64,000 bases of DNA from Planococcus antarcticus DSM 14505 (GTDB taxonomy: Bacteria > Bacillota > Bacilli > Bacillales_A > Planococcaceae): NCBI RefSeq assembly GCF_001687565.2, contig NZ_CP016534.2:496001-560000 (forward strand). The letters run 5' to 3'. The position numbers and the translations under genes are program-made. Positions 18,712 to 61,314 of this stretch are shown piece by piece. Within the stretch, counting starts at the first letter, position 1; each line of letters begins with the position of its first letter. Below the pieces are notes generated by a model. It was given only the letters and a program-made list of their open reading frames with translations. It was not told the origin of the DNA and did not search any database.

Positions 18712-19677
18712 ATGAAATTAGAAGGAATTCATCATGTTTCTGCGATAACAGCCAACGCCGATGCTAATCATGACTTTTTTACAAGGATCCTTGGAATGCG
18801 TTTAGTGAAAAACAGTTTTAATCAGGATAACCCATCTTCGTATCATTTGTTTTATGCCGATGCTGTCGGAACTCCAGGGACTGATATGACGTATTTCGAT
18901 ATCCCGATGGCAGGGCGAACTTACCCAGGCGTTTCAAGCATCAGTAATACGGCGTTCCGTGTGAAAAGCGAAAGAGCATTAGGTTACTGGATCGAACGCT
19001 TTGATGAATTGGAGGTCCCGCATGGCAGTATTGAGCAGCGCTTCAAACGTTCGACGTTAACGTTCCAGGATTTCGAGGGTTCTAGATTGATGCTTGTTGT
19101 CGATGACGGCAGTGGTATTGAATATGGAATACCTTGGACCAAAGCCGGGATTTCGGAAGAGTTTGCGATTGTCGGATTGGGGCATGTCCGATTAACGGTT
19201 CGGAAAAGCGATAAAACGGCATCCGTTCTGACAGACATTATGGGATTTGAACAAATAGGGTATTATCCGTCCACAGTGGAAGGGCAAAAAGATATTTTGG
19301 TCTTTTCGACAGGAAAAGGGGGTCCTGCTGGCGAAATACACTTAGAGGAACGTTTAGACCTTCCGCCGGAACGTCCAGGAAGAGGGAGTGTCCACCATGT
19401 TGCGTTCCGTGTGAAAACGTATGAAGACTATAGCAAGTGGAATAATTATTTGAAATCGAATGGTTTTGTGACTTCCGGTGAGGTCGACCGTTATTACTTT
19501 AAAGCAATTTATTTCCGTGAGCCTAATGGGATTCTTTTTGAATTGTCGACAGATGAGCCAGGATTCGCGACGGACGAACCGATGGATGCTTTAGTGCAAG
19601 AATTAGCGTTGCCGCCATTTTTAGAGCCGAAACGTGCTCAGATTGAAGCATCTCTTCGTCCGCTGAGTATCAATTAA
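18712..19677 (+). CDS. Ring-cleaving dioxygenase / glyoxalase-fold protein (MhqO/MhqA-like)
   Basis: A 321-residue vicinal-oxygen-chelate protein with two paired glyoxalase/bleomycin-resistance modules. Predicted metal ligands are His in GIHHVSAITAN, His in RGSVHHVAFRV and Glu in FELSTDEPG. Members named MhqA, MhqE and MhqO in Bacillus (CatE in Staphylococcus) cleave hydroquinone or catechol-type adducts and are induced by quinones. ATG follows AGAGGAG. The MhqR-type operator overlapping its transcription start supports this role. The small GNAT gene downstream may be co-transcribed (21-nt gap). Confidence 0.9.
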   Translation: MKLEGIHHVSAITANADANHDFFTRILGMRLVKNSFNQDNPSSYHLFYADAVGTPGTDMTYFDIPMAGRTYPGVSSISNTAFRVKSERALGYWIERFDELEVPHGSIEQRFKRSTLTFQDFEGSRLMLVVDDGSGIEYGIPWTKAGISEEFAIVGLGHVRLTVRKSDKTASVLTDIMGFEQIGYYPSTVEGQKDILVFSTGKGGPAGEIHLEERLDLPPERPGRGSVHHVAFRVKTYEDYSKWNNYLKSNGFVTSGEVDRYYFKAIYFREPNGILFELSTDEPGFATDEPMDALVQELALPPFLEPKRAQIEASLRPLSIN

Positions 19678-19698
19678 TGAATAGGAGGAGAATGGAAG

Positions 19699-19980
19699 AT
19701 GGATTTCAAATTGATTGAACTGGGGAGCGACGAATTTGCTTATCGCCTTGAAGAAGAAGGTAAGATAAAAGCGGAAATTACGTGGACAGAGCTGGCAAAT
19801 GTTATGGTTATCGAACATACCTTTGTCGATGAAACGATGCGCAACCACGGCCTGGCCAAGAAACTTTTGGATCGGGCAGCAGACTATGCCCGTGAACACA
19901 GCTATAAAATAGAACCAGTCTGCTCTTATGCGGTAACGGCTTTTGATCGTTACAAAGAATACGATGATGTCAAAATATAA
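19699..19980 (+). CDS. Small GNAT-like N-acetyltransferase (YjdJ/NATD1 type)
   Basis: A 93-residue single-domain protein of the Acetyltransf_CG (NATD1-like) family. After a beta-rich first half, the acetyl-CoA loop is EHTFVDETMRNHGLAKKLLD and the end is the family's PVCSYAVTAFDRYKEY. It may be in one transcript with the dioxygenase. Substrate unknown. Confidence 0.87.
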   Translation: MDFKLIELGSDEFAYRLEEEGKIKAEITWTELANVMVIEHTFVDETMRNHGLAKKLLDRAADYAREHSYKIEPVCSYAVTAFDRYKEYDDVKI

Positions 19981-20043
19981 AGAAAATCTTTAGTGCGATG
20001 CATGTTACTGCTTCTGGTCAAAAAATAGAATAATGGGCATATG

Positions 20044-20079
20044 AAAAGCAATCCGCTGTCAGTCGAGTGGATTGCTTTT
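20044..20079. terminator. Convergent terminator between GNAT gene and 32-aa gene
   Basis: AAAAGCAATCC / GGATTGCTTTT, a perfect 11-bp stem usable from both sides. Confidence 0.75.
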
Positions 20080-20120
20080 GCTAATTGAAGACTATGTATT
20101 TTTGTGTTCGGTACCTCCGG

Positions 20121-20219
20121 TTAAATGCTTGTCATTAAGAACACGATAGCTGTTAAAACTGAAGCTCCGCCAACACCGTACATGAAATCTGCTTGGCTAA
20201 AAATTATATTTTTTTCCAT
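20121..20219 (-). CDS. 32-residue membrane peptide with sigma-B promoter
   Basis: A short frame encoding MEKNIIFSQADFMYG followed by VGGASVLTAIVFLMTSI. It has a perfect AAAGGAG 9 nt before ATG. The first half is polar and the second is a hydrophobic helix long enough to enter a membrane, with a Gly-Gly at its start. The gene is preceded by a sequence matching the sigma-B consensus at both boxes and is followed by a hairpin terminator. I do not recognise a family; it is too short for usual gene callers. It may be a stress-induced membrane peptide or a toxin-like peptide. Confidence 0.68.
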   Translation of the reverse strand: MEKNIIFSQADFMYGVGGASVLTAIVFLMTSI

Positions 20220-20256
20220 TATTTAGAACTCCTTTCAAATCTTTGTTGTTAATAAA

Positions 20257-20281
20257 ATACCCTTCTTTTCGCTTTTTAAAC
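20257..20281 (-). promoter_or_regulatory. Putative sigma-B promoter of the 32-aa gene
   Basis: On the minus strand GTTTAA (20281-20276), 13 nt, GGGTAT (20262-20257): both boxes are identical to the sigma-B consensus. The start codon is about 30 nt downstream of the expected transcription start. Confidence 0.75.
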
Positions 20282-20308
20282 AGGTTTTATTAATTTTATT
20301 AGGGGAAC
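20282..20308 (+). promoter_or_regulatory. Putative sigma-B promoter of the DUF4064 gene
   Basis: AGGTTTTA (20282-20289), 13 nt, GGGAAC (20303-20308). Its -35 box directly abuts the -35 box of the divergent promoter at 20281. Confidence 0.5.
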
Positions 20309-20385
20309 AGAGTAATATAGTAAGGGACCAAAACCTTAACTGTGCGTATACTCATGAGACATAAAAAAAGGAAGAGGTGGATTGA

Positions 20386-20964
20386 ATGAATCAAGACATG
20401 GTGAACAGATCGGGAGAGAAAGTGCTTGGCATTATCGGAATTGTTTTTAATATTTTGGCAATTGCTTTGATCGGTGTTGCGATGGCGAGTTACTCGACTA
20501 TGCCAGAAATGCGGCAGTTTATGGAAGATGAAATTTTGGCGGATCCAACTATAACAAACCCTGAAGACGTGCAAATAATGCTAGATATGATGTCTTCAGG
20601 CTTTACTGTTATGGGATGGGTGATGATTGCATTATTGGGATTAAGTACAATTTTGGCAATTATCGCTTTGGTTAATCTTCGCAAAAAAGGAAAAGCATCC
20701 GTTGCAGGTATTTTCTTTATCCTCGCTGGCTTGTTTGCGGGGCTACTGTCACCGACATCTATTGTTTTCTATATCGCTGCAATTATGTGCTTTGTCCGCA
20801 AACCACAGATACAGCACAAACAGAGCTTGCGCGATGATGACTTCAAGTACCAAGAAGATCAGCTTCATCGCAAAGAAGATTCAGTGCCCCGGGAAGAGGA
20901 GGTGCGTCGTGATGACACTACAACAACCCGCAACGATGACGATACGCCTTACCGCCCCTTGTAA
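20386..20964 (+). CDS. DUF4064 domain membrane protein
   Basis: A 192-residue membrane protein. Helices lie at about 15-37, 75-98 and 105-140; the loop between the first two holds the acidic segment MRQFMEDEILADPTITNPED. The DUF4064 marks are the opening GEKVLGIIGIVFNIL and the second-half ARNL-like ALVNLRKKGKASVAGIFFILAGL. The C-terminal 45 residues are highly charged, with R/D/E/T repeats (REEEVRRDDTTTTRNDDD), and are cytoplasmic by charge. It is probably transcribed from the sigma-B-like promoter at 20282. Confidence 0.85.
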   Translation: MNQDMVNRSGEKVLGIIGIVFNILAIALIGVAMASYSTMPEMRQFMEDEILADPTITNPEDVQIMLDMMSSGFTVMGWVMIALLGLSTILAIIALVNLRKKGKASVAGIFFILAGLFAGLLSPTSIVFYIAAIMCFVRKPQIQHKQSLRDDDFKYQEDQLHRKEDSVPREEEVRRDDTTTTRNDDDTPYRPL

Positions 20965-20984
20965 AGCAGGCGTTAGTGCGACAA

Positions 20985-21028
20985 CAAAAAGAGACGTTCA
21001 GGCAGAAGTGCCTGAACGTCTCTTTTTG
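20985..21028. terminator. Bidirectional terminator
   Basis: A 20-bp perfect stem, CAAAAAGAGACGTTCAGGCA and its complement, with a GAAG loop. It serves the DUF4064 gene and the convergent GNAT gene. Confidence 0.93.
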
Positions 21029-21052
21029 TGAGTCTATGAAAAAATCAATTGC

Positions 21053-21544
21053 CTATAAGACAGCTGCTTTTAGGTCGTAGACATATTTAGTTGTTTGCAA
21101 AGGATGACCTTCAAATAATTCCTCAAATTCTTCGAGAAGTTCAAAGCCGTTTGCTTCATAGAAATTCCGGCCCTTCACGTTTTCGCTCTCTACGTATACG
21201 AAAAGTTTGTTGCCATTGAGCAGATAGCTCAAACCGCTGTTGAGCAATTGTTTGCCATAGCCCGAGCGTTGAAATTCCGGTTTCATGTAGATAGCAATAA
21301 GCTCAGCATCACCATCTTCATCCACTTTTGTGAAATTTGCGAAGCCGATGGGTTGTCCTTCGTGCTCTGCAAGCAATATAAGTGTTCTTTTTAAACGCAT
21401 CTCCATCATTGGAGTAGAATAAGATTTATCCAGAAAAATTTGTTGGACTGTAGAGGGGATGATACCAGCGTACGTATCACTCCAGCTAACTTTAGCAATT
21501 TCTTGAACAGATGTGATATCTGCGGATGTACCAGTACGAATCAT
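21053..21544 (-). CDS. GNAT family N-acetyltransferase
   Basis: A 163-residue single GNAT domain. The start is MIRTGTSADITSVQEIAKVSW; the acetyl-CoA loop is PEFQRSGYGKQLLNSGL, followed by YVESENVKGRNFYEANGFE, the usual motif-B region. ATG is preceded by GAGGTGATT. Similar proteins acetylate small molecules or protein N-termini; the substrate here is not identifiable. Confidence 0.9.
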   Translation of the reverse strand: MIRTGTSADITSVQEIAKVSWSDTYAGIIPSTVQQIFLDKSYSTPMMEMRLKRTLILLAEHEGQPIGFANFTKVDEDGDAELIAIYMKPEFQRSGYGKQLLNSGLSYLLNGNKLFVYVESENVKGRNFYEANGFELLEEFEELFEGHPLQTTKYVYDLKAAVL

Positions 21545-56334: not shown

Positions 56335-56447
56335 AGGGGATAGACTTGCCGACAAAAAAGATGTGAAAAAAACGAATTTCCGATACAATAAAGGGTAGTA
56401 GATAAAATTTAAGATACATAGTGTCGCAGGGAGGGTTTTTAACCAGT

Positions 56448-57275
56448 ATGAATAACCAGATGGCTCAACATATACAGGGCAACTTAACCGAAATCATTTC
56501 GCAATGGCAGGAAAAAATGAAGAGCGAGCAAAATGAACGTTCTTTTCAGGTGATGCCTCAAGAATTGATGAATCAAACCAGCCATGAGTTCGCGGAGTTG
56601 ATGATTTCAAATTTACTTGAAAGCCATCAAGCCTATGAAAGCCAATTGAATGATTTTGCTGAAAAAGTGGTTCGCATCGGATGGTCCGTTACGTTCGTGA
56701 CAAAAGCAATTGGTAATTTTGCTGAAATTGTTTATGAAAGTATGAGCAATGAAGGAGTTATTCATGAAGGCAATATTGCTGCTTATGTAAAGGAATTCAG
56801 TAATTGGATATCACCAATTCGTGAGAGCACGATTCAGGCATACGCCAAAACATGGGAGCGTACCGTCAGCTTGCAAAAGATTGCCCTGCAGGAACTCTCA
56901 GCATCACTTATTCCTGTCTTCGAAAAGGTATCAGTTATGCCATTAGTCGGAACAATCGATACAGAGCGAGCAAAATTGATTATGGAGAATTTGCTAGAAG
57001 GTGTCGTAAAGCATCGGGCAGAAGTCGTATTGCTCGATATTACCGGTGTTCCTGTAGTGGATACAATGGTCGCTCATCACATTATCCAAGCTGCAGATGC
57101 TGTCCGTCTGGTCGGAGCAAAGTGCATGCTCGTCGGAATTCGTCCCGAAATTGCCCAGACAATCGTTACGCTCGGCATTAATTTGAATGATTTTACAACA
57201 ACAAGCACTTTGCAGCGAGGCGTGGAACAGGCATTGGCTTGGACAAATCGGAAAATTGTGGAGGTTGAAGACTGA
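56448..57275 (+). CDS. rsbR: Stressosome co-antagonist RsbR
   Basis: A 275-residue stressosome scaffold protein. Residues 1-140 form the non-heme globin-like sensor domain; residues about 150-275 form a STAS domain with the phosphorylatable Thr in [11 protein letters not shown] and the second in [14 protein letters not shown] 56448 is chosen; GGGAGGG lies about 12 nt before it, a longer gap than usual. First gene of the sigma-B operon. Confidence 0.95.
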
Positions 57276-57637
57276 TGAATTTTAGAATTCCAATTTTAAA
57301 GTTAAGAGACACATTAATTGTTTCGATCCAGTGGGAACTTGATGACCAGACAGCCCTTCAATTCCAGGAGGATTTATTGGCAAAGCTGCACGAAACAAGT
57401 GCACGCGGCGTCGTGATTGATTTGACGTCTATTGATTTTATCGACTCATTTATTGCGAAAGTTCTGGGGGACGTCATCAGCATGTCAAGCCTGATGGGGG
57501 CCAGAGTAGTCATTACCGGCATCCAACCAGCAGTTGCTATCACTTTGATCGAGTTGGGAATTCGACTTGAAGATGTTATGACAGCACTAGATCTAGAAAA
57601 TGGTTTGGATAAACTTCAATTGGAATTGGAGGCTTAA
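57275..57637 (+). CDS. rsbS: Stressosome antagonist RsbS
   Basis: A 120-residue STAS protein that holds RsbT in the stressosome. The phosphorylated Ser is Ser58 in [15 protein letters not shown]. It overlaps the rsbR stop by one base. RsbT phosphorylates it under stress. Confidence 0.96.
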
Positions 57638-57639
57638 AA

Positions 57640-58041
57640 ATGAGCGACCAGTCCTCGGTGGAAATTTTGACAGAATGGGATATTGTTGCTGCAAGACAAC
57701 TCGGACGCAATGTGGCGAAAGAGCTTGGCTTTGGTACAGTTGACCAGGCCCGTATTACGACGGCCATCAGCGAGCTTGCTCGCAATATTTATTTATATGC
57801 CGGCAAAGGCAGAATTGAAATTCAGCAATTAACTGAAAATGGCATCAAAGGGATTTTAATTATTGCTGCAGACAGTGGTCCTGGAATACCAGATATTCGC
57901 AAAGTGATGGAAGATGGCTTTACGACTTCTGGTGGATTAGGAGCGGGACTTCCAGGAGTCAAGCGGTTGATGGATGATTTTAAAATCGAAACAATTTTAG
58001 GCGAAGGTACAGATATAAGAGCTACCAAGTGGCTTCGTTAG
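57640..58041 (+). CDS. rsbT: Switch kinase RsbT
   Basis: A 133-residue GHKL-type serine kinase. N-box AISELARNIYLYA, ADSGPGIPD and the lid GLGAGLPGVKRLMDDF. Under stress it leaves the stressosome and activates RsbU. Two nt separate it from rsbS. Confidence 0.96.
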   Translation: MSDQSSVEILTEWDIVAARQLGRNVAKELGFGTVDQARITTAISELARNIYLYAGKGRIEIQQLTENGIKGILIIAADSGPGIPDIRKVMEDGFTTSGGLGAGLPGVKRLMDDFKIETILGEGTDIRATKWLR

Positions 58042-58053
58042 GGGGAACGCCCG

Positions 58054-59055
58054 ATGGTTCAAGAAATTGAGAATCAATATAAAGAGATTCTAAATGAATA
58101 CATGAAAAAACAGACGGAACAGAATTTGTATGTCGGCCAAAATTTCAGTCGGCAGCTTATTCTGGAAAATATTGCTCCAGAAGACGTCATCAGCATGCAC
58201 AAAGTGGCAATACAAGAGCTTTATGGTGAGTTGCCGGATGTCGTATGGCATTCTTTTGATTTTCTGATTGAAATGATGATCAATTATGGGTTGGCACTTC
58301 AGGAACGGCAAAGCCTCTTAAAGCAGCAAGAAGAGCTGAAAGTGGAAATGGATTTGGCTGCGAATGTTCAGGAAACGTTGCTAAAAACTAAATTGCCTTT
58401 ACTTGAAGGTTTGGATATCGGTCTTCTGTCTATTCCTGCGCGAAAAATGAACGGAGATTATATTTACTTTGTCAGTGATCATGATGGTTATGCTGGGGTG
58501 GCTATTGCAGATGTAATTGGCAAAGGCCTTCCGGCTGCTCTTTGCATGTCCATGATTAAATTCGGCATGGACAGTTTGAATAGTTCACATGCGCTGCCAA
58601 AAGACGTATTGAGCGTTATCAACCGGATTGTTGAGAAAAGTGTTGATGATTCGATGTTCGTTTCCATGTTCTACAGCAATTACGACTCTAAGCAAGCGCG
58701 ATTGACTTATGGCTCGGCAGGACACGAACCGGCTATCATGTATCGCTCCAAAGACAAGGAGTTTGTTGAGCTGCACGCAAAAGGTCTGTTGCTGGGCGTC
58801 TCTCCGGCGGCTGTCTATGAAGAACATACGGTTGATTTGGAAAAAGGCGACTTGGTGATCATGATGACAGATGGCGTAACAGAAGGCCGGAACGACGAAG
58901 GCTTTATTGAGCGTGAAGTTATTTTTGAATTGGTTGAACAGAAAAAAAACGAGTCTGCACAAACGATTGTACAATACGTTTATGATGAGCTTGAACGTAT
59001 GCAAAACGCACAGTTTCAGGATGATTTTACACTAGTGATCTATAAAAAAGTGTAA
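58054..59055 (+). CDS. rsbU: Serine phosphatase RsbU
   Basis: A 333-residue protein with a helical N-terminal RsbT-binding domain (about 1-85) and a PP2C phosphatase domain. Metal-binding residues are in GDYIYFVSDHDGYAGVAIADVIGKG and MMTDGVTEGRND. It dephosphorylates RsbV. Confidence 0.95.
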   Translation: MVQEIENQYKEILNEYMKKQTEQNLYVGQNFSRQLILENIAPEDVISMHKVAIQELYGELPDVVWHSFDFLIEMMINYGLALQERQSLLKQQEELKVEMDLAANVQETLLKTKLPLLEGLDIGLLSIPARKMNGDYIYFVSDHDGYAGVAIADVIGKGLPAALCMSMIKFGMDSLNSSHALPKDVLSVINRIVEKSVDDSMFVSMFYSNYDSKQARLTYGSAGHEPAIMYRSKDKEFVELHAKGLLLGVSPAAVYEEHTVDLEKGDLVIMMTDGVTEGRNDEGFIEREVIFELVEQKKNESAQTIVQYVYDELERMQNAQFQDDFTLVIYKKV

Positions 59056-59061
59056 GGCAAG

Positions 59062-59087
59062 GTTTAATTGTGCATAAATTGTGGTAT
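59062..59087 (+). promoter_or_regulatory. Sigma-B promoter before rsbV
   Basis: AGGTTTAA (59060-59067; core GTTTAA), 14 nt, TGGTAT (59082-59087). The position matches the autoregulatory sigma-B promoter known before rsbV in B. subtilis. Confidence 0.75.
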
Positions 59088-59153
59088 TAGAGCTTAGAAC
59101 AGCTTTTGCAAAAAAGCGGGATTGAATTCAAAAAAACGGGGTGTCGAATCACA

Positions 59154-59483
59154 ATGAATATTCAAGTAGACTTAACGGAGTCGAACAATGTCCTGAAGGG
59201 CTTTGTGCACGGGGAAATCGATGCACATACCGCACCGGTTCTACGTGAAAAATTAGAAGCTTATCAGAATCACCAAGGTTTAAAGGCAGAGTTGGATCTT
59301 TCCGACGTTGATTATATGGATAGTACAGGATTGGGAGTTTTCGTAGCTTTTTACAAGTCGGTCAATGCAAATGGTGGCCATGTGAAGTTAAAAGGACTCT
59401 CTGCACGATTAAAACGGCTTTTCGATATCACAGGTTTAGGCGATATTATGGATATCGAATCCGCCGCGAAGGAGGGTAACTGA
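59154..59483 (+). CDS. rsbV: Anti-anti-sigma factor RsbV
   Basis: A 109-residue STAS protein that frees sigma-B by binding RsbW. The phosphorylated Ser is Ser57 in DVDYMDSTGLGVFVAF. ATG 59154 is chosen because GGGGTG lies 10 nt before it. Confidence 0.96.
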   Translation: MNIQVDLTESNNVLKGFVHGEIDAHTAPVLREKLEAYQNHQGLKAELDLSDVDYMDSTGLGVFVAFYKSVNANGGHVKLKGLSARLKRLFDITGLGDIMDIESAAKEGN

Positions 59484-59484
59484 C

Positions 59485-59955
59485 ATGCGCCCTTTCGATT
59501 ATGTGGAAATGAGAGTTCCTGCTAAATCCCAATACGTAGGTGTTGCAAGACTGACCATTTCGGGTCTGGCAAGCCGTATCGGTTTTTCGTTTGACGATAT
59601 AGAGGATTTGAAAATCGCTTCAAGTGAAGCGGTGACCAATGCAGTTCAACACGCTTACGCAGAAGGTGAAGAAGGCGAAGTCGTCATCGGTTGTGCACTG
59701 TATGAAGATAAGATTGAAATTATGGTAGCAGACCACGGCCAAAGCTTCAATTTTGAAGAAACTAAGGCAAAAGTAGGTCCTTACCACGATCAAGAAGAAG
59801 GTGCTTTTCTTCGTGAAGGAGGTCTCGGCTTGTATTTAATTGAAACATTAATGGATGAAGTCAAAGTTCACCATCAAGAAGGAGTAACAATCTTCATGAC
59901 AAAGCATGTTGAAGGAGAGCAGGTGGAGAAGGATGTCGAAACAGTCTCATCCTAA
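59485..59955 (+). CDS. rsbW: Anti-sigma-B factor and kinase RsbW
   Basis: A 156-residue GHKL kinase. N-box SSEAVTNAVQHAY, G1-like ADHGQSF and G2-like REGGLGLYLIETLMDEV. It binds sigma-B in unstressed cells and phosphorylates RsbV. It overlaps sigB by 23 nt. Confidence 0.96.
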   Translation: MRPFDYVEMRVPAKSQYVGVARLTISGLASRIGFSFDDIEDLKIASSEAVTNAVQHAYAEGEEGEVVIGCALYEDKIEIMVADHGQSFNFEETKAKVGPYHDQEEGAFLREGGLGLYLIETLMDEVKVHHQEGVTIFMTKHVEGEQVEKDVETVSS

Positions 59956-60715
59956 CCAGCCTACTAAAGAGCAGGTGCTTGAGTGGATTGAAGCTTATCA
60001 AAAGACAGAAGATGAAGAAGCCCAGACAAATTTAGTGTTGAATTATAAGCGTCTTGTTGAATCCATTGCGCGAAAATACTCTAATGGTAAATCTTACCAC
60101 GAAGACATCGCGCAAGTAGGCATGTTGGGACTTTTAGGAGCCATTAGGCGCTATGATCCTTCATTCGGTCGTAGCTTCGAGGCTTTCGCCGTGCCTACAA
60201 TTATCGGCGAAATCAAACGCTTTTTGCGCGATAAAACTTGGGCAATCCATGTTCCGCGGCGCATAAAGGAATTGGGGCCACGTATCAAAGCGACGGTGGA
60301 AGTGCTGACAACAGAGCTTCAGCGTTCACCGCAAGTGTGGGAAATCGCCGAATATCTGGATGTTGAAGAAGACGATGTTCTGGAAGCAATGGAAATGGGC
60401 AAAAGCTATCAGGCACTTTCAATGGACCACTCTTTAGAGGCGGATTCAGACGGCAGTACAGTTACATTATTTGACGTAGTCGGACAAGAAGATGATGGAT
60501 ACGAGAAAGCGGATCAGCGGATGCTTGTAGCTGAAGCGATGAATGTGCTTTCTGAACGAGAAAAGCAGATCATCCAATTCACTTACATAGAGCAGCTGAG
60601 CCAAAAAGAAGCCGGAGACAAACTCGGTATTTCTCAAATGCATGTTTCCCGTTTGCAAAGAAAAGCCATTAAAAAACTTCAGGAAGCTATTCTCGCGGCC
60701 GGTGGGGTTTCGTAG
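59933..60715 (+). CDS. sigB: RNA polymerase sigma factor SigB
   Basis: A 260-residue sigma-70 family general stress factor. Region 2: YHEDIAQVGMLGLLGAIRRY and FAVPTIIGEIKRFLRDKTW, with HVPRRIKELGP of region 3; region 4: LSEREKQIIQFTYIEQLSQK and LGISQMHVSRLQRKAI. ATG 59933 has GGAGAAGG close before it inside rsbW. Confidence 0.97.
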   Translation: MSKQSHPNQPTKEQVLEWIEAYQKTEDEEAQTNLVLNYKRLVESIARKYSNGKSYHEDIAQVGMLGLLGAIRRYDPSFGRSFEAFAVPTIIGEIKRFLRDKTWAIHVPRRIKELGPRIKATVEVLTTELQRSPQVWEIAEYLDVEEDDVLEAMEMGKSYQALSMDHSLEADSDGSTVTLFDVVGQEDDGYEKADQRMLVAEAMNVLSEREKQIIQFTYIEQLSQKEAGDKLGISQMHVSRLQRKAIKKLQEAILAAGGVS

Positions 60716-61314
60716 TGGAGAAAATTCAGCATAGTTTCGTAAATGCTTTTATTTTCAACGAAGCAAAAAAAGGGAATTTTGAATCCGGCGACAGCTATCA
60801 CACTGTGTTGACGGACGATTATTTCATTTGCTCTGTAGCCGATGGATTGGGAAGTGGTCCTGTGGCGCGTGAATCGTCTCAAGTCATTCCCGAAATTTTA
60901 CGAGAATATCACCATGAAACAATTGATCAATTAATGTATCGCTTTAACGGATTGATGCTCCAAAAACGCGGGGCTGCCGTAGCCATCTTTAAAGTCGACT
61001 TTAATAAAAAAACGCTTGAATACAGTTGTGTCGGCAATATCCGATTTTACCTATACCGCAAAGCGACAGATGAGATCATCTATCCGCTGCCGGTAATGGG
61101 ATATCTGTCAGGACGACCGCAGAAATTGCGCACTCAGCTTTACACATACGAGGAAAACGATTTGTTCCTGATTCATTCCGATGGAGTGGATTTAAGGAAT
61201 CCGAAAGCCATGATGCGTAAAGCTGCAGTTCCCGAGCAATTATACCGTGACATCTTGGCATCTATTCAAACGGGTGACGATGCAACATTTATAGCAGGAA
61301 GCCTTCTCAAATGA
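60715..61314 (+). CDS. rsbX: Negative regulator phosphatase RsbX
   Basis: A 199-residue PP2C-type phosphatase that resets the stressosome by dephosphorylating RsbS and RsbR. VADGLGSGPVARESS and IHSDGVDLRNP hold the metal-binding Asp residues. GTG 60715 overlaps the sigB stop by one base. Last gene of the operon; no strong terminator is seen after it. Confidence 0.95.
   Translation: MEKIQHSFVNAFIFNEAKKGNFESGDSYHTVLTDDYFICSVADGLGSGPVARESSQVIPEILREYHHETIDQLMYRFNGLMLQKRGAAVAIFKVDFNKKTLEYSCVGNIRFYLYRKATDEIIYPLPVMGYLSGRPQKLRTQLYTYEENDLFLIHSDGVDLRNPKAMMRKAAVPEQLYRDILASIQTGDDATFIAGSLLK

What the first reader, a model, noticed from the sequence alone, without database searches (positions are those of the whole stretch)
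20121..20308. Back-to-back sigma-B promoters drive a 32-residue membrane peptide and a DUF4064 gene
Seen: on the minus strand GTTTAA-N13-GGGTAT, identical to consensus at both boxes, then AAAGGAG and a 32-codon frame with a hydrophobic C-terminal helix and a hairpin terminator. The divergent AGGTTTTA-N13-GGGAAC begins at the very next base. Inference: an unannotated stress-induced membrane peptide co-expressed with DUF4064. Such short genes are normally missed.
Basis: partly seen in the sequence, partly recalled or inferred. Interest (0 to 1): 0.72.

Follow-up and report, generated by a model that had tools for sequence, protein, structure and literature searches.

The report
Conserved stress-promoter membrane peptide gene
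A tiny 32-amino-acid gene sits behind a near-perfect general-stress promoter in Planococcus and related bacteria; its coding frame is clearly conserved, so it is very probably a real small membrane protein, although its function has not been shown.

Summary
Homologues occur in 45 of 46 genomes of the genus and in 113 of 250 family genomes at E<1e-7. Across 42 distinct gene copies dN/dS is about 0.12. The sigma-B-type box is kept in 79 of 84 loci against 0.8% in shuffles; the divergent DUF4064-side box in 50 of 84 against 1.4%. sigB and its rsb operon lie in the same window. Distant homologues occupy the same slot in five more genera. Pfam's only recurring hit is DUF3948, always below its cut-off.

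In 37 of 54 surveyed genomes without a profile hit, DUF4064 sits beside the slot and no peptide is found.

New here: between peptide and terminator, 59 of 84 loci have a Shine-Dalgarno site, an ATG and a 5-10-codon ORF. About 2 are expected by shuffling; about 1.6% of other gene ends have one. The encoded mini-peptide is not conserved, and the window's own copy has lost its ATG. Expression and function are untested.

The parts
20121..20219 (-). CDS of the 32-aa membrane peptide (ATG...TAA)
   Evidence: homologues; codon-level selection; helix 3-31 in the AlphaFold2 single-sequence model, mean pLDDT 86.6
20229..20235 (-). Shine-Dalgarno AAAGGAG of the peptide
   Evidence: Sequence; AAAGGAG or AAAGGGG in many relatives (correctly oriented rows)
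20257..20262 (-). sigma-B-type -10 box GGGTAT of the peptide promoter
20276..20281 (-). sigma-B-type -35 box GTTTAA of the peptide promoter, 13-bp spacer
20282..20289 (+). -35 region AGGTTTTA of the divergent DUF4064 promoter; the GTTTAA and GTTTTA hexamers are 2 bp apart
   Evidence: 50 of 84 loci keep at least 5/6 plus GGG[TA]A
20303..20308 (+). -10 box GGGAAC of the divergent DUF4064 promoter
20386..20964 (+). DUF4064 membrane protein, 192 aa
   Evidence: Pfam PF13273 55.3 bits, cut-off 32.1; weak partial match to AuxB NF047418, 31.4 bits, cut-off 300
20081..20107 (-). decayed micro-ORF: Shine-Dalgarno GGAGG (20114-20118) kept, the ATG of relatives replaced by ACA, in-frame TAG kept
   Evidence: against the relatives (43 of 45 genus loci have the full element)
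20044..20079 (.). bidirectional intrinsic terminator shared with the convergent acetyltransferase gene
19699..19980 (+). convergent neighbour, Acetyltransf_CG GNAT protein (conserved syntenic anchor)
   Evidence: PF14542 82.5 bits; beside the peptide in 40 of 40 loci examined
56421..61314 (+). sigB operon with rsb genes upstream and an rsbX-like gene downstream; sigB ORF at 59906-60715
   Evidence: sigB by TIGR02941, E=2.4e-123; the other ORFs, their names by recalled gene order and resemblance, not by a search

Best explanation
The locus is a real, short sigma-B transcription unit encoding a 32-aa single-helix membrane peptide. Shown: the frame is under purifying selection, a sigma-B-type promoter is conserved in seven genera (weakest in g2), sigB is in the genome, and the gene ends in a conserved terminator. 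Inferred: under general stress, sigma-B polymerase makes an mRNA of roughly 200 nt; the peptide inserts in the membrane through its C-terminal helix (residues about 12-32), and the conserved residues (D11, Y14, G18, L22, with S20 and T23 nearly so) dock it on a membrane or envelope protein whose activity it tunes, as other small stress membrane proteins do. In Planococcus the same control point also faces DUF4064 in the other direction. Because the two -35 boxes are 2 bp apart, two polymerases probably cannot load together.
For: Homologues in 45 of 46 genus genomes and 113 of 250 family genomes at E<1e-7. 42 distinct CDSs: codon-position entropy 0.39/0.13/1.11; mean dN over mean dS 0.12 for the 416 of 861 pairs with usable dS; synonymous to non-synonymous codon differences 8949:5370 in frame against 1474:12554 and 537:13526 in the other two forward frames. 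Peptide promoter in 79 of 84 loci (null 0.8%), DUF4064-side promoter in 50 of 84 (null 1.4%). sigB present, rsb operon in the window. The lax motif in this genome also precedes two YflT-domain genes and an SDR gene. Single helix 3-31, best 18-residue hydropathy 1.87. Conserved columns. Distant homologues in the same slot in g7, g10, g13, g14 and g53; as a group their profile matches with probability 94%, E=1.1e-7.
Against: No expression data. Genome-wide enrichment of the consensus is modest (15 against 6) and absent for the exact form (2 against 4). Other genera carry no detected peptide, so it is not universal. No partner is known, and the nearest candidate, DUF4064, does not co-occur reliably. 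Only 1 of 3 g2 loci reaches 5/6, and the distant homologues in g7, g10 and g13 show no clear sigma-B box, so sigma-B control may belong only to part of the family.
Confidence: 0.72

Rival explanations
1. The transcript is mainly a regulatory RNA and the ORF is incidental.
For: The transcript would be short and the terminator stem sequence is strongly conserved.
Against: Third-position substitutions dominate and dN/dS is 0.12; amino acids are kept across seven genera. In 19600-21100 Rfam gives 3 matches at E up to 0.5, all below gathering score and none over this gene. A dual-function RNA is not excluded.
Confidence: 0.07
2. The peptide is a dedicated partner or subunit of the neighbouring DUF4064 tetraspan protein.
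For: Divergent, with sigma-B-type boxes on both sides in most Planococcus loci; DUF4064 beside the peptide in 39 of 40 loci with profile homologues. AuxB, a DUF4064 protein of Staphylococcus, binds membrane partners (PMC12505970, passages read).
Against: 37 of 54 genomes without a profile hit keep DUF4064 at the slot with no peptide found; 10 of the other 17 have a candidate peptide but no DUF4064 detected beside it. DUF4064 elsewhere in those genomes was not searched.
Confidence: 0.2
3. The peptide is a membrane-active toxin of a type I toxin-antitoxin pair.
For: Length and hydrophobic helix resemble such toxins (recalled).
Against: Nearly always one strong match per genome, at a fixed chromosomal place, with purifying selection; a general-stress promoter. 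An antisense RNA was not searched for beyond Rfam.
Confidence: 0.08
4. The inverted TTAAAC-NN-GTTT(T/A)A element is an operator for another regulator rather than two sigma-B -35 boxes.
For: It is a near-palindrome; a dyad pattern was counted in 38 of 84 loci.
Against: Each half has its own GGG(T/A)A box at 12-15 bp in the loci counted; in g2, g3 and g4 the peptide-side box is kept at 4/6 or better in 20 of 20 loci although no dyad was counted there.
Confidence: 0.1

Closest known systems
Pfam PF13134, DUF3948
   Same: About 35 aa, alignable over most of its length; the only Pfam family that recurs, matched at E<=1 by 10 of the 18 peptides scanned.
   Different: Every match is below the curated cut-off (best 21.9 bits, cut-off 25). 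In Bacillus cereus G9241 five adjacent homologous DUF3948 genes give transcripts of about 110 nt with no known function (PMC10196113, section 8 read); here there is one gene at the place, with a conserved sigma-B-type promoter.
Small stress-induced single-helix membrane proteins of bacteria (for example those of E. coli; recalled)
   Same: Length, single helix, stress-type promoter.
   Different: No sequence relation was tested; in the class sample real hits to this one are confined to one family.
AuxB / DUF4064 proteins (the divergent neighbour)
   Same: The neighbour carries DUF4064 and matches positions 13-192 of the 345-position AuxB model.
   Different: Far below the AuxB equivalog cut-off (31.4 against 300 bits); the long C-terminal tail of AuxB is described as loosely conserved only in Staphylococcaceae (PMC12505970, passages read).

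Membership tests
sigma-B regulon | sigma-B consensus promoter at a fitting distance from the start codon | tested here: met
   GTTTAA-N13-GGGTAT; 79 of 84 homologous loci keep at least 5/6 plus GGG[TA]A. The consensus itself is recalled from Bacillus subtilis
sigma-B regulon | organism carries sigB | tested here: met
   TIGR02941, 411 bits, over the cut-off of 315
sigma-B regulon | transcription depends on sigB and rises under stress | not testable with these tools
   No expression data available
DUF3948 (PF13134) | score above the curated cut-off of 25 bits | tested here: not met
   19 bits for the window peptide; best relative 21.9 bits. Related at most; not filed as a member
DUF4064 (PF13273), neighbour gene | score above the cut-off of 32.1 bits | tested here: met
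   55.3 bits
AuxB equivalog (NF047418), neighbour gene | score above 300 bits | tested here: not met
   31.4 bits
Type I toxin | overlapping or nearby antisense RNA antitoxin | not tested
   Only an Rfam scan was run: nothing reached a gathering score
Type I toxin | toxic when over-expressed | not testable with these tools
   Needs an experiment

The most novel reading that the evidence does not exclude
The sigma-B unit is bicistronic. After the peptide, a strong ribosome-binding site and an ATG open a 5-10-codon micro-ORF that ends at the terminator. The start site recurs in four genera while the amino acids do not, so selection would act on initiating translation there, not on the product: a built-in ribosome-loading element at the 3' end of a stress mRNA that protects it, recycles ribosomes or sets its lifetime.
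Probability: 0.3. Interest if true: 0.75.

Novelty: new variant of a known kind. Interest (0 to 1): 0.55.

Why it matters
Genes this short are easily left out of genome annotation, and here one of 32 codons is shown by codon-level selection and promoter conservation. It gives a testable candidate of the general stress response in the Planococcus family, links distant short peptides by synteny, and points to a conserved translation start just before a terminator whose role I cannot name.

Tried and rejected
Genome-wide motif counting as proof of the promoter: too weak by itself.

In-frame stop as proof of the micro-ORF: all 57 loci with Shine-Dalgarno plus ATG by the count have an in-frame stop by the terminator, but from the first ATG the +1 frame stops there in 58 of 65 loci too (frame 0: 60, frame +2: 15). 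So the stop is little evidence; the start site is the evidence.

Codon test of the micro-ORF: 225 synonymous against 1085 non-synonymous codon differences in frame for the MxNYI group (29 loci, 26 distinct), no better than a shifted frame (262:952); 16:167 in the other group (14 loci, 10 distinct). No sign that the peptide is selected.

Plasmid search with a relative's peptide: no match. Pfam DUF3948 in 398 genomes of the class: 11 matches at E<=0.01, none over the cut-off; in the own genome E 0.03, with 6 of 14 control genomes also ringing at E<=1. Profile A2 in the class: 22 strong hits, all in the family, plus 3 weak ones outside. Rfam: nothing at gathering level.

The one genus genome without a hit (G003, 350 contigs): no peptide, no acetyltransferase neighbour and no match to a relative's 800 bases (the tool warns that an empty answer alone shows nothing), so locus loss or an assembly gap. 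A weak match in G047 away from the slot (E 0.38) was not followed.

Papers: the searches 'DUF3948' (2 papers), 'DUF4064'+'sigma B', 'DUF4064', 'Planococcus'+'sigma B'+'small protein', a five-term small-membrane-protein search, divergent/back-to-back (67, 8 of 554 listed) and minigene (68, 8 of 32 listed) showed no description of this gene in the titles and abstract starts listed. Passages on DUF4064 were read in PMC9439231, PMC12505970 and PMC12791056 (a Listeria DUF4064 gene in a table of bacteriocin-responsive genes), on DUF3948 in PMC10196113 (29, and its section 8). The library holds open-licence papers only.

Full report
Observation. The minus strand carries GTTTAA-N13-GGGTAT (20281-20257), AAAGGAG, and a 32-codon ORF ending at 20121. 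The plus strand carries AGGTTTTA-N13-GGGAAC, starting at the next base. The terminator is at about 20044-20079, outside the stated range, and can serve both strands.

Host and regulator. The window is G000:C1:496001-560000 of a 3.8 Mb genome. The five named records that hold DUF4064 homologues are Planococcus or Planomicrobium, family Caryophanaceae in the NCBI taxonomy. sigB lies in the window at about 59.9-60.7 kb, at the end of an rsb operon (the rsb names are by recalled order). In 249 of 250 family genomes the sigma-B model matches at E<=1e-40, in 241 over its cut-off, so presence of sigB hardly distinguishes genomes with and without the peptide.

The ORF is a gene. A single-sequence search finds it in 52 of 100 genomes at E<=1, including 45 of 46 genomes of the genus (own included; G003 missing); two of the 52 (G047, G091) are weak. 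A profile finds it in 117 of 250 family genomes, 113 of them at E<1e-7, these in 7 of 19 genera; the other 4 are at E 0.007 or worse. In the class sample there are 22 strong hits, all in the family, and 3 weak ones outside (398 genomes). All 50 copies first examined start with ATG; 48 have exactly 32 codons. Across 42 distinct 32-codon CDSs the third position carries most change and dN/dS is about 0.12 (mean dN over mean dS for the 416 of 861 pairs with usable dS).

Promoters. I examined 84 loci (45 of the genus, 39 of the 68 other genomes with E<1e-7). At least 5/6 of GTTTAA plus GGG[TA]A with a 12-15 bp spacer is found on the peptide side in 79 of 84 (45 of 45 in the genus, 9 of 9 in g5, 8 of 8 in g11, 3 of 3 in g4, 2 of 2 in g12, 11 of 14 in g3, 1 of 3 in g2), against 0.8% in shuffled upstreams, and on the DUF4064 side in 50 of 84 (38 of 45 in the genus, 4 of 9 in g5, 8 of 8 in g11, none in g2, g3, g4, g12) against 1.4%. 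The sequences are related, so these are not independent events. Exact-motif counts in the genome are not enriched (2 against 4) and lax ones only modestly (15 against 6), but several lax sites stand 34-56 bases before genes with YflT or SDR domains.

Synteny and depth. In 40 loci the Acetyltransf_CG gene is convergent with the peptide in 40, and DUF4064 is divergent in 39. In 54 genomes without a profile hit I looked at the same slot (14). Where DUF4064 is adjacent (37), no candidate peptide is found; in the 31 the gap from the acetyltransferase match to the DUF4064 match is 93-288 bases, once 476. Where DUF4064 was not detected beside the slot (17), 10 have a short hydrophobic ORF with a ribosome-binding site; I leave out one non-ATG ORF (L169) as implausible. 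As a control, the filter recovers the known peptide in 84 of 84 loci and gives one other candidate; one search used a different filter that was not tested so. A profile of eight of the candidates (A4) matches the Planococcus-like profile (A2) with 94% probability, E=1.1e-7. So a fast-evolving peptide family appears to sit beside this acetyltransferase gene in 12 genera and to be missing in others. Pfam's DUF3948 is the only recurring hit (10 of 18 peptides scanned), always under the cut-off.

Micro-ORF. Between the peptide's stop and the terminator, 59 of 84 loci contain a Shine-Dalgarno motif, ATG and a short ORF (3-12 codons allowed) ending by the terminator: g1 43 of 45, g4 3 of 3, g11 6 of 8, g3 7 of 14, none in g2, g5, g12. 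Shuffled spacers give about 2 in all. Of 312 ends of mechanically called ORFs of 90 aa or more with a terminator-like hairpin in the same taxa, 7 score, 2 of them this locus itself (some of these ORFs may not be genes). In the genus the ORF is 8 codons in 40 of the 41 loci counted, although the peptides differ (MKNYIVEH, MSQTFINT); 5 or 7 codons in g11, 5 or 9 in g3. Distant slots L167 and L171 also show 5-codon versions by eye; the g10 loci and L226 show none by eye. Against a selected product: no codon-level conservation. Against the in-frame stop as evidence: the +1 frame stops about as often. The window's own copy has ACA for ATG, and L027 keeps the ORF but lacks the Shine-Dalgarno motifs searched, so the element is dispensable in at least one species.

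Mechanism. Shown: gene, promoter conservation, sigB present, terminator, a predicted helix (single sequence). Inferred: stress induction, membrane insertion, a membrane partner. The 2-bp distance between the two -35 hexamers suggests that the two promoters exclude each other; this is geometry, not measurement.

Verdict. A sound first reading, confirmed in its core and extended; weaker on DUF4064; with one unexplained extra feature, the conserved micro-ORF start.

Noticed in passing
L053:822-955 and many contigs of G003: A dispersed repeat of about 130 bp, between terminator and acetyltransferase gene in one Planococcus relative, has 40 scored matches (of 109 candidates) in another genome of the genus.
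   Followed up: no
window 20081-20107, minus strand; L003-L057, L081-L120: Shine-Dalgarno plus ATG micro-ORF just before the terminator in relatives; start codon lost in this window.
   Followed up: yes
window 52061, plus strand: Another sigma-B-like site, GTTTAT-N13-GGGAAT, second best in the window.
   Followed up: no
L002 and L138 (own genome): Sigma-B-type sites (L002 exact, L138 lax) 56 and 35 bases before genes with YflT stress domains.
   Followed up: partly
L142 (own genome): A sigma-B-type site 37 bases before a gene of bacterial archaeo-eukaryotic release factor family 5, which might matter for ribosomes under stress.
   Followed up: no
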